Positions 11,852 to 19,434 of a DNA stretch of 57,562 bases are shown piece after piece; the first letter of the stretch is position 1, and each line of letters opens with the position of its first letter. The translations under genes and the position numbers were made by a program. The notes beneath the pieces are model-generated. The model ran no database searches. It was not told where the DNA came from and saw only the letters and a list, made by a program, of their open reading frames with translations. Source of the stretch: Anaerolineae bacterium CG2_30_57_67 (GTDB lineage Bacteria; Chloroflexota; Anaerolineae; Anaerolineales; Villigracilaceae); contig MNXJ01000069.1 of NCBI GenBank assembly GCA_001872455.1, positions 1-57,562 of the forward strand, read 5' to 3'.

Positions 11852-13159
11852 ATGACTCCTTTTCTGCAACTACTACTCGCGCTAGTTGTTCTCCTGGTCG
11901 CTGCTAAACTAACCGGGTTGCTGGCGATTCGCCTGCATCAGCCCTCGGTGCTGGGAGAATTACTGGCAGGCATTTTGCTTGGCCCGTCGGCTTTGCATCT
12001 CTTGGCCTGGCCGATTTTTAGCGATTCTGGCGGGCTGGAACATATTCTGGCCGAACTGGGCGAAATTGGCGTTTTATTGTTGATGTTCATTGCCGGGCTG
12101 GAATTGCATCTCTCCGAGCTGCGCAGCAACCTAAAAGTAGCCGGGCTAGGCGGAACGTTGGGCGTACTATTGCCGCTCCTGCTGGGCTGGTTAACCGGCC
12201 TGGTTTTTGGCATGGAGCAATCAGCAGCGATTTTCCTGGGGCTGGTGATGGGCGCCACCTCCGTCAGCATTTCGGCGCAAACGCTGATGGAATTGAACGC
12301 GCTCAAAACCCGCGTGGGGCTGGGCTTGCTCGGCGCGGCGGTTTTTGACGATATTCTGGCAATTTTCCTGCTTTCGGCGTTTTTTGCGCTGACTTCCGGC
12401 ACGGGCGGCCTGCTAGAAATCGTTTGGGTGTTCGCGCGCATGGCGCTGTTTTTTGCGCTGGCTTTTGGCTTTGGCCTGTGGCTGTTGCCGCGCGTCATCC
12501 GCGTCACGCGCAACCTGCCCATCAGCCAGGGGATTTTGACGCTGGCGCTGGTGACGATTTTTGGCTACGGGCTGGCAGCGGAAACAGTCGGACAGATGGC
12601 CGCCATCACCGGGGCCTTCATCGCCGGGCTGATGTTTGCCCGCACGCCGGAGAAAGAGACGCTCACCCCGCGTATTTCGGCGCTGGCGTACGGCTTTTTC
12701 GTCCCACTTTTTTTTGTGGGGATTGGGCTGAATACCGAAATTCCCCTTGGCGCGAAAACACTAACGCTTTCGCTGGTGGTCATTTTGGTGGCAATTTTTT
12801 CCAAGTGGCTGGGTGTTGGCGTGGGCGCGCGTCTGGCAGGTTTTTCGTGGCGCGAGAGCGTTCAGCTGGGCATGGGCATGGTTTCGCGCGGTGAAGTCGG
12901 GCTGATTGTCGCCAGCGCCGGGGCGCGCGCCGGGCTGGTCAGTGAAGGCGAATTTGCCGCCGTCGTCGGCATGGTGATTGTCAGCACACTGGTCACGCCG
13001 CCCGCTTTACGCGCCTTGTTTCAACTACCCGAAGACTGGTCGCCGCCATTTCCACGCTTTAAAAGACGAGTGCGCCCCAAACCGGTTCAGCCCGCTAATG
13101 CGGAACATCCCGGCACAACCAATACCGAAGAGAAAGTGGCGTCCAAGGAGCAAACATGA
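11852..13159 (+). CDS. Kef/CPA2-type cation:proton antiporter
   Basis: A 435-residue membrane protein with about 12-13 helices, starting with the family phrase HQPSVLGELLAGILLGP. The CPA2 core is visible: GATSVSISAQTL, and the ion-binding AVFDDILAIF with a DD pair. The C-terminal 40 residues are short, basic and cytoplasmic. There is no TrkA-N (NAD-binding) domain as in KefC, so regulation must come from elsewhere. The next gene, a PII-like protein, overlaps by four bases (ATGA) and is the natural candidate. Whether the cation is Na+ or K+ cannot be told. Confidence 0.9.
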   Translation: MTPFLQLLLALVVLLVAAKLTGLLAIRLHQPSVLGELLAGILLGPSALHLLAWPIFSDSGGLEHILAELGEIGVLLLMFIAGLELHLSELRSNLKVAGLGGTLGVLLPLLLGWLTGLVFGMEQSAAIFLGLVMGATSVSISAQTLMELNALKTRVGLGLLGAAVFDDILAIFLLSAFFALTSGTGGLLEIVWVFARMALFFALAFGFGLWLLPRVIRVTRNLPISQGILTLALVTIFGYGLAAETVGQMAAITGAFIAGLMFARTPEKETLTPRISALAYGFFVPLFFVGIGLNTEIPLGAKTLTLSLVVILVAIFSKWLGVGVGARLAGFSWRESVQLGMGMVSRGEVGLIVASAGARAGLVSEGEFAAVVGMVIVSTLVTPPALRALFQLPEDWSPPFPRFKRRVRPKPVQPANAEHPGTTNTEEKVASKEQT

Positions 13160-13506
13160 GTCTCATCCTTTTTGTTTTGCATGACCCCGAAAAGCTTCAA
13201 CAGGTCTTGGCCGCCTGGGAATCCTGCGGCATTCCTGGCGCATCAGTGTTATACAACACCGGGCTGGGCGCGATTCGCCAGCACGAGGGCCTGCGCGACG
13301 ACATTCCGCTGATTCCCTCGCTGAGCGATTTCTTCTCGCACCCGGAGCATCACGGGCGGACGATTTTTTCGATTGTGCCGGATGACGCCATCGTGCCCGC
13401 GCTTGTGCGCGCCACCGAAGAGGTAGTCGGCGACCTGAACGAGCCGAACAACGGCATTCTGGCAGTTTTACCCATCAGCCAGGTGTACGGCCTGAGAAAA
13501 CGATAA
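13156..13506 (+). CDS. Small PII-like protein coupled to the antiporter
   Basis: A 116-residue soluble protein. A beta strand followed by a helix at the start (LILFVLHDPEKLQQVLAAWESCGIPGASVLY) and the closing VVGDLNEPNNGILAVLPI fit the ferredoxin-like fold of PII/CutA-type trimers. No T-loop uridylylation Tyr motif is evident. Start and stop overlap with the antiporter gene, so the two are translationally coupled. By analogy with other transporter-associated PII-like proteins it probably gates the antiporter in response to a ligand. Fold and role are inferred. Confidence 0.65.
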   Translation: MSLILFVLHDPEKLQQVLAAWESCGIPGASVLYNTGLGAIRQHEGLRDDIPLIPSLSDFFSHPEHHGRTIFSIVPDDAIVPALVRATEEVVGDLNEPNNGILAVLPISQVYGLRKR

Positions 13507-13574: not shown

Positions 13575-13668
13575 CATTCATTCCGTAAAATAGAGACGAA
13601 TGTCATTTGCAGGGGCTGTGAAAAAATGCTACACTCGAAATCAGGTTGATATTTTGATGGAGGCTGGC

Positions 13669-14070
13669 ATGGGAAAAATTTTTGCTTTTATCGGCGCGGG
13701 CGTTTTGTTTTTGGTTTCGTTTTGTTTTTTGGGGTACGCCGCTCTGGCGTTGATTGGTTCCACCGACCCGGCAAGTGGTTCGTCCAGTTGGGTTGGGTTG
13801 GGTGGTGTTTTGGGCGTGATTGGCTTGTTTTTGGCGGGCGGCGGCGCATTTCTGATTTGGGTCGGGCTGCGCGGCCAAAAAACCGAAGTCGTGCAGCAGG
13901 TGACGATGCAGGTGGATTTGCCCGGTGAAACCAAAGTGGAGCAAATGAAATGTCGCTCGTGCGGCGGAGTGATTTCGTCCAGCGATATTAAATTGATGGC
14001 GGGCGCGCCGGTGGTGACCTGCCCGTACTGCCAGTCTACCTATTCGCTGACCGAAGAACCCAAGTGGTGA
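13669..14070 (+). CDS. Small membrane protein with C-terminal zinc ribbon
   Basis: A 133-residue protein with two hydrophobic helices (about 3-25 and 40-63), a charged linker and a C-terminal zinc ribbon formed by CRSCGG and CPYCQS. I chose the ATG at 13669 for the GGAGG at 13659-13663; longer starts lack a ribosome site. It lies 16 bases before the DUF2207-like gene, so it is in the same operon. The ribbon should face the cytoplasm. The function is unknown. Confidence 0.75.
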   Translation: MGKIFAFIGAGVLFLVSFCFLGYAALALIGSTDPASGSSSWVGLGGVLGVIGLFLAGGGAFLIWVGLRGQKTEVVQQVTMQVDLPGETKVEQMKCRSCGGVISSSDIKLMAGAPVVTCPYCQSTYSLTEEPKW

Positions 14071-14086
14071 GTGGCGGAGGCATACC

Positions 14087-15763
14087 ATGAAATATCGCAT
14101 CTATTCTTTTTTGATGACCATTTTGCTGGCGCTGGGCGTGACCTCGGCGGCGCTGGCGCAGAGTTACTCGTTTCGTGTGCCGAAGGAAGTGGTGCGCGTC
14201 TTCGTCAACGCCGATGGCACGCTGGCGCTGGATTATGTTTTTGAATTTCAAAATGAATCCGGCGCACATGCGATCGATTTTGTGGATGTGGGTCTACCGA
14301 ACAGTAATTACGATTTCAACAGCATTTCAGCGGATGTGGATGGAGTCCCCGTCAGCATTTCCAGCGACTATCAGGGGGATGGCGGCTCCGGCGTTTCGGT
14401 GGACATGGGCGGCCAGGCGATTGCGCCCGGCCAGAGCGGGGTGGTGCATGTGCATGTGGGCAAAGTGGAGCGCATGATTTTCCCCGACGATGCGGATGAG
14501 ACCTACGCCAGCATGGAATTTATGCCGACCTATTTCGGCTCGGCCTACGTCAACGGGCAGACAAATTTGACGATGATTCTGATTTTGCCCTCCGGGGTGA
14601 CGTCGGATCAGCCGCGCTACCACCCGGCGCGTGGCGGCTGGCCTGGCGCCAGCGAGCCGGTGATTGCTCAAAACAGTCAGGGCAACCTCACCTACACCTG
14701 GCAAAGCGACAGCGCCAGCGCCGCCGGTCAGTACACTTTCGGCGCCTCCTTCCCGGCCAGCGCCGTGCCCGAAAGCGCCATCGTGCGCACGACCGCCTTC
14801 GATTTGCTGCTGGGCGGAATTGCCGCCGTAGTAGTGGGCGGGTTCTTCAACATTCTGCCGTTTTGCTGTTTCGGTGGTTTTTTCTTCGGCCTGCCCATTT
14901 TGGGCGCAGTACAGGAACGTAAGCGCAAATTGCAATACATGTCGCCGAAAATTTCCATCGAAGGGCACGGCATCAAACGTGGGCTGACAGCGGTGGAAGC
15001 GGCGGTGCTGATGGAAACCCCGCTCGACAAAGTGATGACGATGATTTTGTTCGGCGTCGTCAAAAAAGGCGCGGCAGAAGTGGTGCGCCGCGACCCGCTG
15101 CAGCTCAAAATCTCGGAGCCCCAACCCGAAAATTTGCGCGGCTACGAAAAGAGTTTCGTGGCAGCCTTTGCCAAGCCCGACGCCGCGCGCCGCAAGGATT
15201 TACAGGCGCTGGTGGTGGAACTGGTGCGCAGCGTGGAAGAGAAGATGAAAGGCTTCAGCAAAAAAGAAACGCAGGAATATTACAAATCCATCAACGACCG
15301 CGCCTGGACGCAAATTGAAGCCGCCAACACGCCCGAAGTCAAAAGCCAGATGGCTGAGGAAGCGCTCGAATGGACGATGCTCGATAAAAATTATGATGAC
15401 CGTTCGCGCCGCGTCTTCACCGGCCCGATGTACGCGCCGCTTTGGTGGGGACGCTATGACCCTGGTTACGGCGGCAGCGCGGCTTCCGGCTCTGGCGGCG
15501 GCTCGGCGCCCATGTCCATGCCGACTACCAGCGGCGGACGCACCGCCCTGCCGGGCGCGGCGTTTGCCTCCAGCGTCATCACCAACACCCAAACATTTGC
15601 TCAAAAAGTGTTGGGCGGCACCGATACCTTCACGCAGGGCATCACCAAAGTCACCAATCCGCCGCCGGTATCGACTTCCAGCGGTGGTGGACATTCGGGT
15701 GGCGGCGGATGCGCCTGCGCCTGTGCCGGTTGCGCCTGCGCCTGTGCTGGCGGCGGACGGTAA
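14087..15763 (+). CDS. DUF2207-like membrane protein with Cys-Ala tail
   Basis: A 558-residue protein. A signal peptide (1-24, ending ALAQ) is followed by an exported beta-rich domain (about 25-230). Next come one or two membrane helices (about 238-282, with CC in ILPFCCFGGFF) and a cytoplasmic region (about 290-460). A Gly/Ser-rich stretch leads into the last 17 residues CACACAGCACACAGGGR, with six cysteines alternating with alanine. The layout matches DUF2207-type predicted membrane proteins, which usually end in Gly-rich tails. The regular Cys tail could bind metal, or could be a substrate for modification by the radical SAM enzyme encoded 463 bases downstream. The latter is my hypothesis. 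Confidence 0.75.
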   Translation: MKYRIYSFLMTILLALGVTSAALAQSYSFRVPKEVVRVFVNADGTLALDYVFEFQNESGAHAIDFVDVGLPNSNYDFNSISADVDGVPVSISSDYQGDGGSGVSVDMGGQAIAPGQSGVVHVHVGKVERMIFPDDADETYASMEFMPTYFGSAYVNGQTNLTMILILPSGVTSDQPRYHPARGGWPGASEPVIAQNSQGNLTYTWQSDSASAAGQYTFGASFPASAVPESAIVRTTAFDLLLGGIAAVVVGGFFNILPFCCFGGFFFGLPILGAVQERKRKLQYMSPKISIEGHGIKRGLTAVEAAVLMETPLDKVMTMILFGVVKKGAAEVVRRDPLQLKISEPQPENLRGYEKSFVAAFAKPDAARRKDLQALVVELVRSVEEKMKGFSKKETQEYYKSINDRAWTQIEAANTPEVKSQMAEEALEWTMLDKNYDDRSRRVFTGPMYAPLWWGRYDPGYGGSAASGSGGGSAPMSMPTTSGGRTALPGAAFASSVITNTQTFAQKVLGGTDTFTQGITKVTNPPPVSTSSGGGHSGGGGCACACAGCACACAGGGR

Positions 15764-16226
15764 ATGCGCAAAAATCAGGAGGTTTCGGGTTCCAACGTTT
15801 CCTACAAAATTAAATAGCTGATATTACACAGCAAGAACTCTGTGGCGCGACATTTATGTCGCGGTTGTGCCAAAGAAACCGGACAGGTGTATTTTTAGGA
15901 CTATTTGAAAGACTTCAGGTTTCTGAAAATTGGCTGACGTCAATTTTTAGAGTCTTGCCGAAAAACGGGGCAGGTTGGGCAGGCCCGCGCAAATCGCAGA
16001 TTTGCGCCACCGTTGGCGGCCCATTTTGCCAATCTTTTGGACGGGTTCTTCTCTGTTCAGCGCCTATTCAACAGCTCTAAAATTTCAACTTTCCGGTTTC
16101 TGCGACGCAACCGTGTGGAGCAAGTCTCTGACTTGCCCGCGCAAATCGCAGATTTGCGCCACTGGTTCTTGTTGCGCAACATCAGTTAAATAAATTTCAA
16201 CTTTATAGATTTGGACGAGGTAAACG
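15764..16226. repeat. Non-coding 463-bp stretch with five hairpin repeats
   Basis: There is no convincing gene here. Contents: GCGACATTTATGTCGC (15847-15862); arms GCGCAAATC/GATTTGCGC with loop GCA twice (15987-16007 and 16139-16159); and GCAAGTC/GACTTGC with loop TCT (16120-16136). In addition, CGCGCAAATC... is flanked by GCCCG and CCAC in both copies. Short open frames across it consist mostly of repeat sequence. A promoter for the radical SAM gene should lie near its right end. Confidence 0.75.
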
Positions 16227-17609
16227 ATGTCCCTGAATTTTAGAACAGGTCTGCAACACTTTTTTGCGCTGGATAAGAAAACTTCAAATCGAGAAAATGC
16301 CCAAAGTCGGGAGACTTTGGACTCCAAAATCTATCACTACCTGCTCGAAACCCCCGGAGAGAAAAGCCGTGTTCACCTGCGCCTCGACGCGGACGGACGC
16401 GGCACGCTGATTGTCAACGCCAACCGCATCACGCACCTCAACCCCTCGGCGGCGTGGATGGCAAAACAAGTGCTGGACGGAAAAACCGAAGCCGAAATTT
16501 TGCAGGCTGGCCGGAAGACCTGGAACGTGAAACCTGACACCTTGAAACAGGATTTTCAAGCCTTCAACCAGCAACTCGCCAGCCTGATTCGACCGGACGG
16601 CGCCTGCCCGGTGCATGACCTCGACCTGGAAATGCTGATGCCCTTCAGCGCCCGCCCCTCCGCGCCCTACCGCCTCGACCTGGCCCTCACCTACCGCTGT
16701 AACAACGACTGTCACCACTGCTACAATCTCGAACATCCCCAGCCCGGCCAGCCGCTCCAGCGCCCGGAACTCTCCACCGCCGAGTGGATTCAGGTCATTG
16801 ACAAGGCCTGGGCGCTCGGCATTCCGCACATCATCTTCACCGGCGGCGAACCCACTTTGCGCGACGACCTGCCAGCGCTGATTGCCCACGCCGAGGGCAA
16901 CGGTCAAATTACCGGCATGAACACCAACGCCCGGCGGCTGAGCGACGCCAATTTCGTCCAACGGCTGGTGGATGCGGGCCTCGACCACGTCCAAATTACG
17001 GTCGAATCCGCTGACGCCGACATCCACAATCAAATGGTCAATGCCCGCGCTTTCGACCAAACCATCGCCGGGCTGAAAAATGTTTTGGCGACGCGCCTGT
17101 ATGTCATGACCAACACCACCATGCTGCGCGATAACGTCGCCAGCATCCCGGCCACCCTCGATTTTCTGGCCGATTTGGGCGTGCCGACCGTTGGCCTGAA
17201 CGCGCTGATTCATTCCGGCCACGGCGCGACAGTTGGCACCGGCCTGCCGGAGCGCGACCTGGCTCCACTGCTGGAAATCGCCCGCGCCAAAACCGAAGCC
17301 CGCGGCCAAAAACTGATCTGGTACACGCCGACCCAATATTGTCACTTCGACCCGGTACAAATGGATTTGGGCGTCAAAGGCTGCACCGCCGCGCAATACA
17401 ACATGTGCGTTGAACCCGACGGCGCGGTATTGCCCTGCCAGTCGTACTACAAACCGCTCGGCAACCTGCTGACGGATGACTGGGACTCGATTTGGAATCA
17501 CCCGCTGGCGCTGAAACTGCGCGAGCGCCTCGACTTGCCCGAAAAATGCGCAGGTTGTGCGCTGGTCGCCGAATGCGGTGGCGGCTGCCCGTTGCAATTT
17601 GAAAACTAA
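16227..17609 (+). CDS. PqqD-radical SAM-SPASM peptide-modifying enzyme
   Basis: A 460-residue protein with three parts. Residues about 35-125 resemble PqqD, the peptide-binding chaperone (LRLDADGRGTLIVNANRITHLN...). The radical SAM core has the cluster motif C158xxxC162xxC165 and GGEP (206-209). The SPASM region has seven cysteines (386, 394, 404, 441, 444, 450, 454) for extra Fe-S clusters. Such fusions act on ribosomally made peptides or proteins (sactipeptide, ranthipeptide or similar maturases). A GAGG ribosome site lies before the ATG. A hairpin repeat lies within codons 25-35. No small precursor peptide gene is evident beside it. A degenerate paralogue lies two genes downstream. Confidence 0.9.
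   Translation: MSLNFRTGLQHFFALDKKTSNRENAQSRETLDSKIYHYLLETPGEKSRVHLRLDADGRGTLIVNANRITHLNPSAAWMAKQVLDGKTEAEILQAGRKTWNVKPDTLKQDFQAFNQQLASLIRPDGACPVHDLDLEMLMPFSARPSAPYRLDLALTYRCNNDCHHCYNLEHPQPGQPLQRPELSTAEWIQVIDKAWALGIPHIIFTGGEPTLRDDLPALIAHAEGNGQITGMNTNARRLSDANFVQRLVDAGLDHVQITVESADADIHNQMVNARAFDQTIAGLKNVLATRLYVMTNTTMLRDNVASIPATLDFLADLGVPTVGLNALIHSGHGATVGTGLPERDLAPLLEIARAKTEARGQKLIWYTPTQYCHFDPVQMDLGVKGCTAAQYNMCVEPDGAVLPCQSYYKPLGNLLTDDWDSIWNHPLALKLRERLDLPEKCAGCALVAECGGGCPLQFEN
16301..16332. repeat. Hairpin repeat inside the radical SAM gene
   Basis: A perfect hairpin with arms CCAAAGTC/GACTTTGG and loop GGGA (16301-16320), followed by ACTCCAAAATCT. This is the same order as in the thrC leader at 5481-5514. 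It encodes about residues 25-35 of the enzyme, in a stretch with no counterpart in the paralogue at 18286, so it looks like an in-frame insertion. Confidence 0.75.
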
Positions 17610-17615
17610 CGTTGT

Positions 17616-17920
17616 TTGACCAGTTGACCAGTTATCCAGTTGACCAGTTGATCAGTTGACCAGTTATCCAGTTGACCGGTTTGACTGCCTAACCGAACAA
17701 CTGCCTAACCGAACAACTGCCTAACCGAACAACTGAACAACCGAACAACCGAACAACCGAACAACTGAACAACTGAACAACTGAACAACCGAACAACTGA
17801 ACAACCGAACAACCGAACAACCGAACAACTGAACAACTGAACAACTGAACAACCGAACAACCGAACAACTGAACAACCGAACAACTGAACAACTGAACAA
17901 CCGAACAACCGAAAAACTGG
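17616..17920. repeat. 8-bp tandem repeat array (two unit types)
   Basis: It begins with eight consecutive 8-bp units of the type TTGACCAG/TTATCCAG (17616-17679). From about 17691 it continues with units AACCGAAC/AACTGAAC, including a 16-bp variant AACCGAACAACTGCCT at the start, up to about 17917. That makes some two dozen units of the second type. The period is strictly eight in both parts. It fills the gap before the PAS gene, whose AAGGAG lies at 17932. Reading it as protein on the minus strand gives only an 8-residue echo, so I call it non-coding. Confidence 0.9.
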
Positions 17921-17941
17921 AAAACTGGAAAAAGGAGAGTT

Positions 17942-18274
17942 ATGAACTGGCTCAAAGAATTTCCCGCCGCCATCACCGTCTGCGACCCGGACGGCATCCT
18001 TTTGGAAATGAACGACAAAGCCGCCCAAACCTTTGAAAGCGACGGCGGCTACGCCCTGATTGGCAAAAACATGCTCGACTGCCACCCCGCCCCGGCGCGC
18101 GTCAAAACCGAACGCCTGCTGGCGGCGCACCAGAAAAACGTCTACACCATTGAGAAAAAAGGCCTCAAAAAACTGATTTACCAAAGCCCCTGGTATCAAA
18201 ACGGCCAATACGCCGGTTTTGTCGAAATCTCGCTGGAAATTCCGTTTGAAATGCCGCATTTTCTGCGCGGATGA
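17942..18274 (+). CDS. Stand-alone PAS-domain protein
   Basis: A 110-residue protein that is a single PAS domain: FPAAITVCDPDGILLEMNDKAA, GKNMLDCHP, and a closing beta strand YAGFVEISLEI. AAGGAG lies before the ATG. Its stop overlaps the ATG at 18271 and lies only 11 bases before the preferred start of the next gene. It lies between the active and the degenerate radical SAM genes. A role as sensor or small-molecule-binding subunit of that system is possible. No cofactor residue can be named with confidence. Confidence 0.8.
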   Translation: MNWLKEFPAAITVCDPDGILLEMNDKAAQTFESDGGYALIGKNMLDCHPAPARVKTERLLAAHQKNVYTIEKKGLKKLIYQSPWYQNGQYAGFVEISLEIPFEMPHFLRG

Positions 18275-18285
18275 AAGGAAATCCT

Positions 18286-19434
18286 ATGGCTGCTTTCATG
18301 GACTGGCTCAAAGAACGCTTTACCTCCGTCACCCCCCTGCCGGTTGGCGTTTACCACCTGCAATCCGCGCCGGAAGGCAGGCCGCCCTTCCGGCTGCACC
18401 TGCGCCTGCAAAAAGATGGCAGCGGCATCCTCATCGTCAACGCCAGCACGGTCTTGCAACTCAACCCAACCGCCGCCGAATACGCTTACCACGTCATCAA
18501 AGGCACCGACCCGATTGAAGCCGCCAAAACCGTCGCCGCACGCTACCGGGTCAAAAAATCGCAGGCGCTGGCCGATTTCAGCGATTTTATGACCCGCATC
18601 CTGGCGCTCGCCGAAACGGAAGACCTCGACCCGGTGGCGACTCTCGGCTTTGAACGCGTTGCGCCCAACAGCGCCGCTTTAACCGCCCCCCTGCGCCTCG
18701 ATTGCGCGCTCACCTACCGCTTGCCCCCCGGCGCCGACCCGCTCAACGCTCCCGCCAAAAACGTCACCCGCGAACTGACCACCGCCGAATGGCAGCAAAT
18801 CCTCGACCTGGCCTGGGCGCAGGGCGTGGCGCACATCGTCTTCACTGGCGGCGAGGCCACCCTGCGCGCCGACCTGCCCGACCTGATTGCCCACGCCGAG
18901 AAAAACGGCCAGGTCACCGGTCTGCTGACCGATGGTCACAAACTGACCGACCCAGCCTACCTTGAAACCCTGCTGCAAACCGGCCTCGACCACCTGATGA
19001 TGGTTTTGCCCACCGACGCCGAACCTAACTGGCAGGCCCTCCAAAACGCCATCGCCGCCGATATTTTCCTCGCGGTTCATCTCACCTTGACCCCACAAAA
19101 TATTTCCGGCGCGCGCGCCCAAATGCAGAAGTTGCACACCGCCGGAATTGAGGCGCTTTCGCTCAGCCTGAGCGACGCCGCCCTGCGCGAAGAAGCCTCC
19201 CATCTGCGCGATTTCGCCGCCGAGTTGGGCCTGCGCCTCGTCGCCGACTTGCCCGTCCCCTACTCCGCCGCCAACCCGGTCGCCCTCGAAACCGCCGAAG
19301 AAAACGAAATCCCCGGCGCGGGCAAAGTCTGGCTGTACGTCGAACCCGATGGCGACGTACTCCCCGCGCAAGGGCTGGCCGAAAACATCCTGGGCAACCT
19401 GCTGACCGATGCCTGGGAAAAAATTTACCACTGA
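18286..19434 (+). CDS. Degenerate (pseudo) radical SAM paralogue with PqqD-like N-terminus
   Basis: A 382-residue protein, collinear with the enzyme at 16227. The PqqD-like part (about 22-110) aligns well (LRLQKDGSGILIVNAS against LRLDADGRGTLIVNAN). The barrel keeps HIVFTGGEATLRADLPDLIAHAE, but the CxxxCxxC loop is replaced by YRLPPGADPLNAP (144-156). The SPASM end keeps YVEPDGDVLPAQ..LGNLLTD but has no cysteines and stops short. No Fe-S cluster can be bound, so it cannot be a radical SAM enzyme. The frame is intact and the codon use like its neighbours, so it is a pseudoenzyme rather than a pseudogene, perhaps a docking partner. I chose the ATG at 18286 for AAAGGA upstream. Confidence 0.85.
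   Translation: MAAFMDWLKERFTSVTPLPVGVYHLQSAPEGRPPFRLHLRLQKDGSGILIVNASTVLQLNPTAAEYAYHVIKGTDPIEAAKTVAARYRVKKSQALADFSDFMTRILALAETEDLDPVATLGFERVAPNSAALTAPLRLDCALTYRLPPGADPLNAPAKNVTRELTTAEWQQILDLAWAQGVAHIVFTGGEATLRADLPDLIAHAEKNGQVTGLLTDGHKLTDPAYLETLLQTGLDHLMMVLPTDAEPNWQALQNAIAADIFLAVHLTLTPQNISGARAQMQKLHTAGIEALSLSLSDAALREEASHLRDFAAELGLRLVADLPVPYSAANPVALETAEENEIPGAGKVWLYVEPDGDVLPAQGLAENILGNLLTDAWEKIYH

What the first reader, a model, noticed from the sequence alone, without database searches (positions are those of the whole stretch)
14087..19434. Possible radical SAM modification system: active enzyme, cluster-less paralogue, PAS protein and a Cys-Ala-tailed membrane protein
The sequence shows a PqqD-radical SAM-SPASM enzyme (16227-17609) followed by a small PAS protein and a paralogue that keeps the PqqD part and barrel but has lost all cluster cysteines. 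Just upstream, a DUF2207-like exported membrane protein ends in CACACAGCACACAGGGR. PqqD-SPASM enzymes are known to act on ribosomal peptides, often linking Cys sulfur to a neighbouring carbon. No short precursor gene is evident, so the Cys-Ala tail of a large membrane protein is an attractive substrate. This link is inference; the 463-bp gap means the genes may not share an operon.
Basis: partly seen in the sequence, partly recalled or inferred. Interest (0 to 1): 0.8.

Follow-up and report, generated by a model that had tools for sequence, protein, structure and literature searches.

The report
Enzyme-modified cysteine-alanine membrane protein tail
A radical enzyme gene sits beside, and nearly always travels with, a membrane protein ending in a repeated cysteine-alanine tail in bacteria and archaea, so the enzyme very probably modifies that tail, a protein modification we could not find described.

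Summary
The window encodes a signal-peptide, probably single-pass membrane protein ending CACACAGCACACAGGGR (14087-15763), a PqqD-radical SAM-SPASM enzyme (16227-17609), a small PAS-like protein, and a paralogue without cluster cysteines (18271-19434). Searches from either side converge. In 350 sampled genomes of the phylum, all 23 with the enzyme have the tail next to it; the only other tail hit is a wrong-frame chance match. In a Lachnospiraceae sample all 16 enzyme genomes have a Cys-Ala tail next door. In Asgard archaea 25 of 26 tail genomes have the enzyme, though six enzyme genomes show no exact tail and some pairs are unlinked. A sister enzyme clade pairs with a homologous membrane protein bearing a different tail, CHSAC repeats. 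No conserved short peptide gene was found. The enzyme model resembles SkfB, SuiB and CteB. The tail is predicted to face the cytosol, suggesting modification of a resident membrane protein. The chemistry (thioether links) is inference. The PAS gene and inactive paralogue are lineage-specific accessories.

The parts
13600..14070 (+). small membrane protein with a C-terminal zinc ribbon, directly upstream of the tail gene
   Evidence: 156 aa, no family over cut-off; its cluster lies directly before the tail gene in 13 of 20 relatives' loci; tblastn hits in 35 of the 118 named stretches, archaeal ones among them; Pfam sees a zinc ribbon inside 5 of 34 clostridial-type tail proteins
14087..15763 (+). 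tail-bearing membrane protein: signal peptide (residues 1-22), exported beta domain (about 25-225), one predicted transmembrane helix (237-283), helical domain, Gly-rich linker, Cys-Ala tail
   Evidence: AlphaFold model pLDDT 84.2, pTM 0.48; hydropathy and K/R counts; alignment of 46
15710..15760 (+). proposed modification site: tail CACACAGCACACAGGGR (residues 542-558), six Cys
   Evidence: sequence; pLDDT under 50 in the model; Cys numbers across relatives
16227..17609 (+). PqqD-radical SAM-SPASM enzyme, proposed tail-modifying enzyme
   Evidence: Pfam; model pLDDT 89.2, closest SkfB/SuiB/CteB; C158, C162, C165 and C386, C404, C441, C444, C450, C454 invariant in an alignment of 40
16413..16583 (+). 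PqqD (peptide-recognition) domain of the enzyme
   Evidence: PF05402, 31.5 bits
17942..18274 (+). PAS-like protein, optional accessory
   Evidence: sub-threshold PAS hits; present in a subset of relatives only
18271..19434 (+). radical SAM paralogue without cluster cysteines, lineage-specific partner
   Evidence: with 14 relatives one group of support 100/100

Best explanation
The enzyme at 16227-17609 post-translationally modifies the Cys-Ala tail of the membrane protein at 14087-15763. Proposed working: the membrane protein is inserted by its signal peptide and one transmembrane helix, leaving the tail in the cytosol; the PqqD domain docks on a segment near the tail (candidate: the conserved helix and TNPxP stretch before the Gly-rich linker); the radical SAM cluster makes a 5'-deoxyadenosyl radical and the SPASM clusters assist bond formation at several Cys, most likely thioethers from Cys sulfur to carbons of neighbouring residues, loss of about 2 Da each, up to six here. 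The cluster-less paralogue probably acts as a non-catalytic substrate-holding or regulatory partner in Anaerolineae. Shown by sequence: enzyme architecture, genetic coupling, pairing of enzyme clade and tail type. Inferred: that the tail is modified, the topology, the bond type, the docking site, the paralogue's role.
For: Two-way co-occurrence: Chloroflexota sample, enzyme at 656 bits or more in 23 of 350, all 23 with the tail on the same contig and strand; the 24th tail hit is a wrong-frame chance match. Lachnospiraceae sample: 13 of 200 with the tail, all with the enzyme; the other 3 enzyme genomes carry a variant tail (CACACASSGRAGC) next to it. Asgard sample: 25 of 26 tail genomes have the enzyme. 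Reversed-pattern control: 0 in the 739 genome rows of the four tail searches, some genomes counted more than once. Of 113 genuine tail stretches found without regard to the enzyme, 92 hold an enzyme-family frame in the same stretch of at most 8 kb (80 with CxxxCxxC, 10 fragments, 2 only the degenerate paralogue), and 17 of 19 others tested have it elsewhere in the genome. In 83 of 90 parsed pairs the genes lie within 200 bp. A sister enzyme clade (100/100) goes with a homologous membrane protein whose tail is CHSAC repeats. Enzyme model: SkfB Z 28.6, SuiB 27.7, CteB 25.9. No conserved short peptide gene.
Against: No product was observed. Six of 31 Asgard enzyme genomes show no exact tail, and none was seen in the fetched stretches around the enzyme of G659, G640, G665, G647, G709 and G615 (the last and G647 lie at contig ends); in G632 and G653 tail and enzyme are on different contigs. 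Two of 13 clostridial tail genomes have no enzyme at E 1e-40 (L122, L137). Clostridial enzymes lack the CxxCx5CxxxC part of SPASM (0 of 12), so the chemistry may not be uniform. The cytosolic placing is a prediction: the membrane stretch is long enough for a hairpin, which would put the tail outside, and the tail itself scores as hydrophobic in several members. Sampled genomes are related, so the Fisher values overstate independence. The tail-first set was chosen by the pattern, so tail invariance there is partly by selection; the enzyme-first counts are free of this.
Confidence: 0.8

Rival explanations
1. The tail is modified by this enzyme, but by epimerisation (for example L- to D-Ala) or C-C bond formation rather than S-C thioethers. 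(This overlaps with the main explanation and differs only in chemistry.)
For: The Cys-Ala alternation is very regular; SuiB, which makes a carbon-carbon link (recalled; the title of PMC5491770 in the listing names a Lys-Trp bond made by a SPASM peptide cyclase), is as near in fold as SkfB (Z 27.7 and 28.6); the epimerase EpeE appears at Z 18.6.
Against: Cys is the best-kept tail letter while the residue after it is at times Val and once Asp; the nearest fold is SkfB, a sactionine-forming enzyme (abstract start of PMC6231123, listing).
Confidence: 0.25
2. The Cys tail stays chemically plain and works as a metal or redox site (metallothionein-like); the enzyme modifies another site or molecule that the same pathway needs.
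For: CxC repeats are typical metal ligands (general knowledge); a zinc-ribbon protein is encoded upstream or fused.
Against: It does not explain why the enzyme clade tracks the tail type (CA versus CHSA), nor why enzyme-first searches land on a tail gene in 23 of 23 and 16 of 16 genomes. The PqqD domain points to a peptide substrate.
Confidence: 0.12
3. The tail is a substrate of an MNIO (DUF692) enzyme, as proposed for TIGR04222 membrane proteins, and the radical SAM enzyme is incidental.
For: TIGR04222 has weak hits in 5 of 46 tail proteins, and TIGR04222 membrane proteins with Cys-rich C-terminal segments are proposed MNIO substrates (PMC12452194, passages read).
Against: The window's genome has no PF05114 hit, and only 4 of 41 genomes do, 3 of them among the 29 tail genomes.
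Confidence: 0.02
4. The inactive paralogue is the tail's main partner, the active enzyme serving something else.
For: 22 of 23 enzyme genomes of the phylum sample have a second, lower-scoring hit close by, read as this paralogue; it is next to the tail in L106, L117 and L126, where the active gene is farther off or not seen in the stretch.
Against: It was not seen in the clostridial and archaeal stretches, where the active enzyme alone flanks the tail; one genome (G131) has the paralogue with neither exact tail nor active enzyme.
Confidence: 0.05

Closest known systems
PqqD(RRE)-radical SAM-SPASM peptide maturases (SkfB, SuiB, CteB, PqqE/PqqD)
   Same: Domain content, CxxxCxxC, SPASM-type cysteines and overall fold.
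   Different: The proposed substrate is the C-terminus of a membrane protein of several hundred residues, not a short leader-core peptide; no NCBIfam maturase model shown comes near its cut-off (best 123.5 of 381 bits needed).
TIGR04222 membrane proteins with Cys-rich tails next to MNIO enzymes (PMC12452194, passages read)
   Same: Membrane protein with a low-complexity Cys-bearing C-terminus proposed as enzyme substrate; distant sequence kinship (5 of 46 weak hits).
   Different: Other enzyme class; no MNIO hit in the window's genome; those tails are predicted periplasmic in the paper, ours cytosolic; strict Cys-Ala or CHSA code.
Sactipeptides and ranthipeptides (for example ruminococcin C, PMC8188230, listing and start of abstract only)
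   Same: Cys-bearing core acted on by radical SAM enzymes of the SPASM kind; the thioether model would be the same reaction.
   Different: Those are short peptides; here a membrane-bound tail, bond type unknown.
TvgA/TvgB and other repeat peptides with SPASM enzymes (PMC9062424, passages read)
   Same: Repeated motif in the substrate modified several times by one SPASM enzyme.
   Different: TVGG or Asp-Cys repeats in peptides; no Cys-Ala repeats in the passages seen.

Membership tests
RRE-radical SAM-SPASM RiPP maturase | CxxxCxxC radical SAM motif | tested here: met
   C158, C162, C165 in the window enzyme; 44 of 44 CA-type enzymes tested
RRE-radical SAM-SPASM RiPP maturase | SPASM auxiliary-cluster cysteines | tested here: met
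   SPASM 38.7 bits over cut-off 21.5; CxxCx5CxxxC in 43 of 44 CA-type and 0 of 12 clostridial enzymes
RRE-radical SAM-SPASM RiPP maturase | PqqD/RRE domain | tested here: met
   PF05402 over cut-off
RRE-radical SAM-SPASM RiPP maturase | short precursor peptide gene nearby | tested here: not met
   no Cys-rich short frame shared by 5 or more of 20 Anaerolineae-order or 34 clostridial stretches; the linked gene encodes a large membrane protein
RRE-radical SAM-SPASM RiPP maturase | covalent modification of the partner | not testable with these tools
   needs expression and mass spectrometry
Sactipeptide/ranthipeptide | Cys sulfur to carbon thioether links | not testable with these tools
   sequence cannot show the bond
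TIGR04222 / MNIO substrate | TIGR04222 match | tested here: not met
   window protein: none at E 0.01; 5 of 46 aligned proteins weakly (best 3.2e-4)
TIGR04222 / MNIO substrate | MNIO gene in the genome | tested here: not met
   no PF05114 hit in the window's genome
DUF2207 (PF09972) | Pfam match over gathering score | tested here: not met
   none for the window protein; 1 of 46 and 5 of 34 aligned proteins at E up to 0.01
PAS domain protein (17942-18274) | PAS profile over cut-off | tested here: inconclusive
   PAS_4 21.8 of 23.1 bits, PAS_9 19.9 of 27
TIGR04347 pseudo-SAM/SPASM | match over cut-off for the paralogue | tested here: not met
   40.1 of 525 bits

The most novel reading that the evidence does not exclude
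A protein-modification system spanning bacteria and archaea in which radical SAM enzymes install multiple bonds in Cys-repeat tails of a resident, cytosol-facing membrane protein, in at least two sequence codes (Cys-Ala and Cys-His-Ser-Ala), each with its own enzyme clade and in some lineages an inactive enzyme paralogue as partner. The product would be a membrane-anchored protein-derived cofactor or knot rather than a secreted peptide.
Probability: 0.55. Interest if true: 0.9.

Novelty: new variant of a known kind. Interest (0 to 1): 0.82.

Why it matters
Radical SAM peptide enzymes are mostly known as makers of short peptides (recalled). Here one enzyme family seems to treat the tail of a large resident membrane protein, with nearly the same tail spelling in Chloroflexota, Clostridia, Asgard archaea and many other, largely anaerobic, groups (lifestyle recalled), which suggests a housekeeping or signalling role. 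The tail is short, regular and at or near the very C-terminus, so one co-expression and mass-spectrometry experiment would decide it, and cultured carriers exist (for example Ornatilinea apprima, locus L091). It would give a function to protein families now unnamed in Pfam and NCBIfam, and the matching of two enzyme clades to two tail codes gives a handle on how these enzymes choose substrates.

Tried and rejected
Chance tail: rejected by the reversed-pattern control and codon variation. Five of 118 tail stretches (L058, L059, L070, L080, L100) and one genome of the phylum sample (G207) were judged chance matches and dropped. DUF2207 membership: not confirmed. MNIO: in 4 of 41 genomes only. 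Short hidden precursor: free frames of 20-99 aa were clustered; two clusters of 4 of 20 loci in the Anaerolineae-order set (a zinc-binding-looking protein of about 95 aa with 4 Cys, and a simple short stretch) and none in 5 or more of 34 clostridial stretches. One origin of the two inactive paralogue groups (Anaerolineae type, and the Planctomycetota/Armatimonadota/Chloroflexota type): neither shown nor rejected (p-AU 0.384; one search was the same test, unfinished). Promoter and terminator scan: no excess over shuffles. Neighbouring genes (putative Zn-peptidase, methyltransferase, methylmalonyl-CoA mutase, unknown 340-aa protein) are each in at most 11 of 20 loci and were not taken as core. 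Literature: motif strings and combinations with radical SAM, DUF2207, TIGR04222, Asgard and Anaerolineae gave, in the listings shown (20 of 23, 12 of 33), no paper on this system; the library is open-licence PMC only. The fold search with the tail protein barely tested its domain after the membrane helix.
Full report
WHAT IS THERE. The open reading frames stand at the stated places. The 558-aa protein at 14087-15763 ends in CACACAGCACACAGGGR, encoded at 15710-15760. The enzyme at 16227-17609 has PqqD, Radical_SAM and SPASM domains over their cut-offs. The 387-aa paralogue at 18271-19434 keeps the GGE[PA] stretch and part of the barrel but has a single cysteine; it and 14 relatives all lack CxxxCxxC and the SPASM run. 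The 110-aa protein between them is PAS-like at sub-threshold scores. No Pfam or NCBIfam family matches the window's membrane protein at E 0.01. None of the NCBIfam models shown for the enzyme reaches its cut-off (best 25 of 61 shown), nor do those shown for six enzyme-family proteins from other loci (best 25 of up to 58 shown).

ENZYME AND TAIL TRAVEL TOGETHER. Among 41 genomes (own plus 40 relatives) the pattern for CACACAGGG was found in 29, the control in none. All 29 have an enzyme hit at E 2.5e-92 or better; of the 12 without the tail, 11 have only weak hits (3.1e-24 or worse), and the twelfth, G029, has the enzyme and a tail-protein gene cut by the contig end. In 350 sampled genomes of the phylum, the tail pattern was in 24 and the enzyme at 656 bits or more in 23; all 23 have both, on one contig and strand, separated by -32 to 608 bases in model coordinates. 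The extra tail hit, in G207, is a wrong-frame chance match. In 200 genomes of the family of locus L050 (titled Lachnospiraceae) the tail was in 13 and the enzyme at 571 bits or more in 16; all 13 have both on one contig and strand, and the other three carry the variant CACACASSGRAGC beside the enzyme. In 148 genomes of the phylum of L052 (titled Heimdallarchaeota) the tail was in 26 and the enzyme in 31 (29 at 533 bits or more, two as fragments), 25 with both. G624 has the tail, near a contig edge, without enzyme. Six have the enzyme without the exact tail; the fetched stretches around these showed no Cys-Ala tail (two lie at contig ends), and in G632 and G653 the two are on different contigs. 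The samples are not phylogenetically independent, so the Fisher values (4e-35, 6e-18, 1e-21) only rank the strength.

TAIL-FIRST VIEW. Five are chance matches; 113 are tails at or near a C-terminus. By record title they come from Chloroflexota, Clostridia, Asgard archaea, Methanomassiliicoccales, Bathyarchaeota, Thermoproteota, Zixibacteria, Aminicenantes, Krumholzibacteria, Planctomycetota, Armatimonadota and others. An enzyme-family frame of at least 60 bits lies in the same stretch (at most 8 kb) in 92 of 113: 80 with CxxxCxxC, 10 fragments, and L054 and L114 with only the degenerate paralogue. Of the other 21, 19 genomes were searched whole and 17 have the enzyme; L122 and L137 do not at E 1e-40; L117 and L150 were not searched (these two calls also held 7 genomes already known to have it). 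Where both genes could be parsed, 83 of 90 pairs lie within 200 bp and 86 of 90 on the same strand; frames were begun at the first start codon, so overlaps are upper bounds. In Clostridia the enzyme is upstream, often overlapping the tail gene; in Chloroflexota and archaea it is usually downstream. L065 shows two tail genes around one enzyme.

TWO TAIL CODES. Chloroflexota genomes G170 and G050, and 22 Asgard genomes, carry a more distant relative of the enzyme at 345-386 bits. None of these 22 Asgard genomes has the Cys-Ala tail pattern. Nine of the 22 were fetched: seven have, close to the enzyme, a homologous membrane protein ending in CHSAC repeats (for example [49 protein letters not shown]); L204 shows none in the stretch and L207 is cut by a contig end. 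G170 and G050 show the same kind of tail. Nine such enzymes (L204's among them) form one group with support 100/100 in a tree of 85 rows. G050 carries both enzyme types, each beside its own tail type. That the enzyme clade tracks the tail code is the best evidence that the tail is what the enzyme reads.

THE MEMBRANE PROTEIN. Profile comparison aligns the exported domains of the Anaerolineae/archaeal-type and clostridial-type tail proteins (E 4.8e-39, 207 columns); the reported alignment stops before the membrane helix. So the exported domain and the tail persist while the middle changes. Hydropathy shows a signal peptide and, in most members, one further strong hydrophobic segment, mostly followed by Lys/Arg, and the model has one 47-residue helix there; this predicts a cytosolic tail. 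Against it: some members show more hydrophobic stretches, a hairpin is not excluded, and the tail itself passes the hydropathy threshold in several members. The exported domain (25-225) resembles the lumenal domain of OST1/ribophorin I (Z 17.2, 183 aligned, 2.7 A) and M1 aminopeptidase beta domains. Tail Cys number is 7 in 23 of 46, 6 in 12 of 46 and 8-10 in 11 of 46 Anaerolineae/archaeal-type members; 6 is commonest (16 of 34) in the clostridial type. Odd numbers are common, which argues against simple pairing of all cysteines with one another. Because these sets were chosen by the pattern, tail identity there is partly selected; the enzyme-first counts above are not affected.

THE ENZYME. 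The model (pLDDT 89.2) is closest to SkfB (6efn, Z 28.6, 3.7 A, 348 aligned), SuiB (5v1s, 27.7) and CteB-type 5why (25.9; the name CteB is recalled) among 1000 Foldseek-ranked chains. This supports a peptide-modifying role with a recognition domain; it does not fix the bond made.

ACCESSORIES. The cluster-less paralogue: 22 of the 23 enzyme genomes of the phylum sample have a second, lower-scoring hit (156-289 bits) close to the first, read as this gene by score and position; G050 has none. G131 has it with neither exact tail nor active enzyme. It was not seen in the archaeal or clostridial stretches. In Planctomycetota, Armatimonadota and some Chloroflexota loci another paralogue has lost CxxxCxxC but kept the SPASM run (5 of 5 tested); it forms its own group, and a shared origin with the first type is not rejected (p-AU 0.384). 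The PAS cluster is in 6 of 20 relatives' loci and the zinc-ribbon gene in 13 of 20.

KNOWN OR NEW. Searches of the open-licence library showed no paper with the motif or the pairing (listings seen, some capped). The nearest idea in print that I saw is that TIGR04222 membrane proteins with Cys-rich C-termini are substrates of MNIO enzymes (PMC12452194, passages read); here the enzyme class and predicted topology differ, and the window's genome has no MNIO hit. I therefore call it a new variant of radical SAM-SPASM peptide modification, with a resident membrane protein as probable substrate.

WHAT STAYS OPEN. The modification itself, its chemistry, the docking segment, the role of the paralogue and the function of the protein are inference. 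If all six tail cysteines formed thioethers the tail would be about 12 Da lighter.

Noticed in passing
window 14087-15763, residues 25-225: The exported domain resembles the lumenal domain of OST1/ribophorin I (Z 17.2), and the layout (signal peptide, beta domain, one helix, helical part) recalls Asgard OST1, whose cytosolic bundle binds ribosomes (PMC11417166, passages read). Whether the domain after the membrane helix is related was not tested.
   Followed up: partly
window 15987-16007 and 16139-16159: A perfect palindrome GCGCAAATCGCAGATTTGCGC occurs twice in the gap between tail gene and enzyme and, at up to 2 mismatches, nowhere else in the window; none expected by chance.
   Followed up: no
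window 17616-17917: Arrays of 8- and 32-bp tandem repeats lie between the enzyme and the PAS-like gene.
   Followed up: no
L167:5593-7308, L172:4052-5794, L201:3787-5943 and kin: Membrane proteins ending in long CHSAC repeats, in Chloroflexota and Asgard archaea, with their own enzyme clade.
   Followed up: partly
L093, L124, L054, L169, L170: A second kind of degenerate radical SAM paralogue that lost the CxxxCxxC motif but kept SPASM-type cysteines, in loci with the Cys-Ala tail system.
   Followed up: partly
L065; L094 and L105 (one contig): Two tail-bearing proteins near one enzyme in Lachnospiraceae, suggesting the enzyme can serve more than one tail protein.
   Followed up: no
window 13156-13506: A 116-aa P-II-like protein (22.5 bits, below cut-off 25) follows a cation:proton antiporter gene at 11852-13159.
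   Followed up: no
L185, L187, L192, L200: A gene cluster whose one tested member is a sub-threshold Peptidase_Mx match lies downstream of the paralogue, at times two or three copies in a row, in 8 of 20 Anaerolineae-order loci.
   Followed up: no
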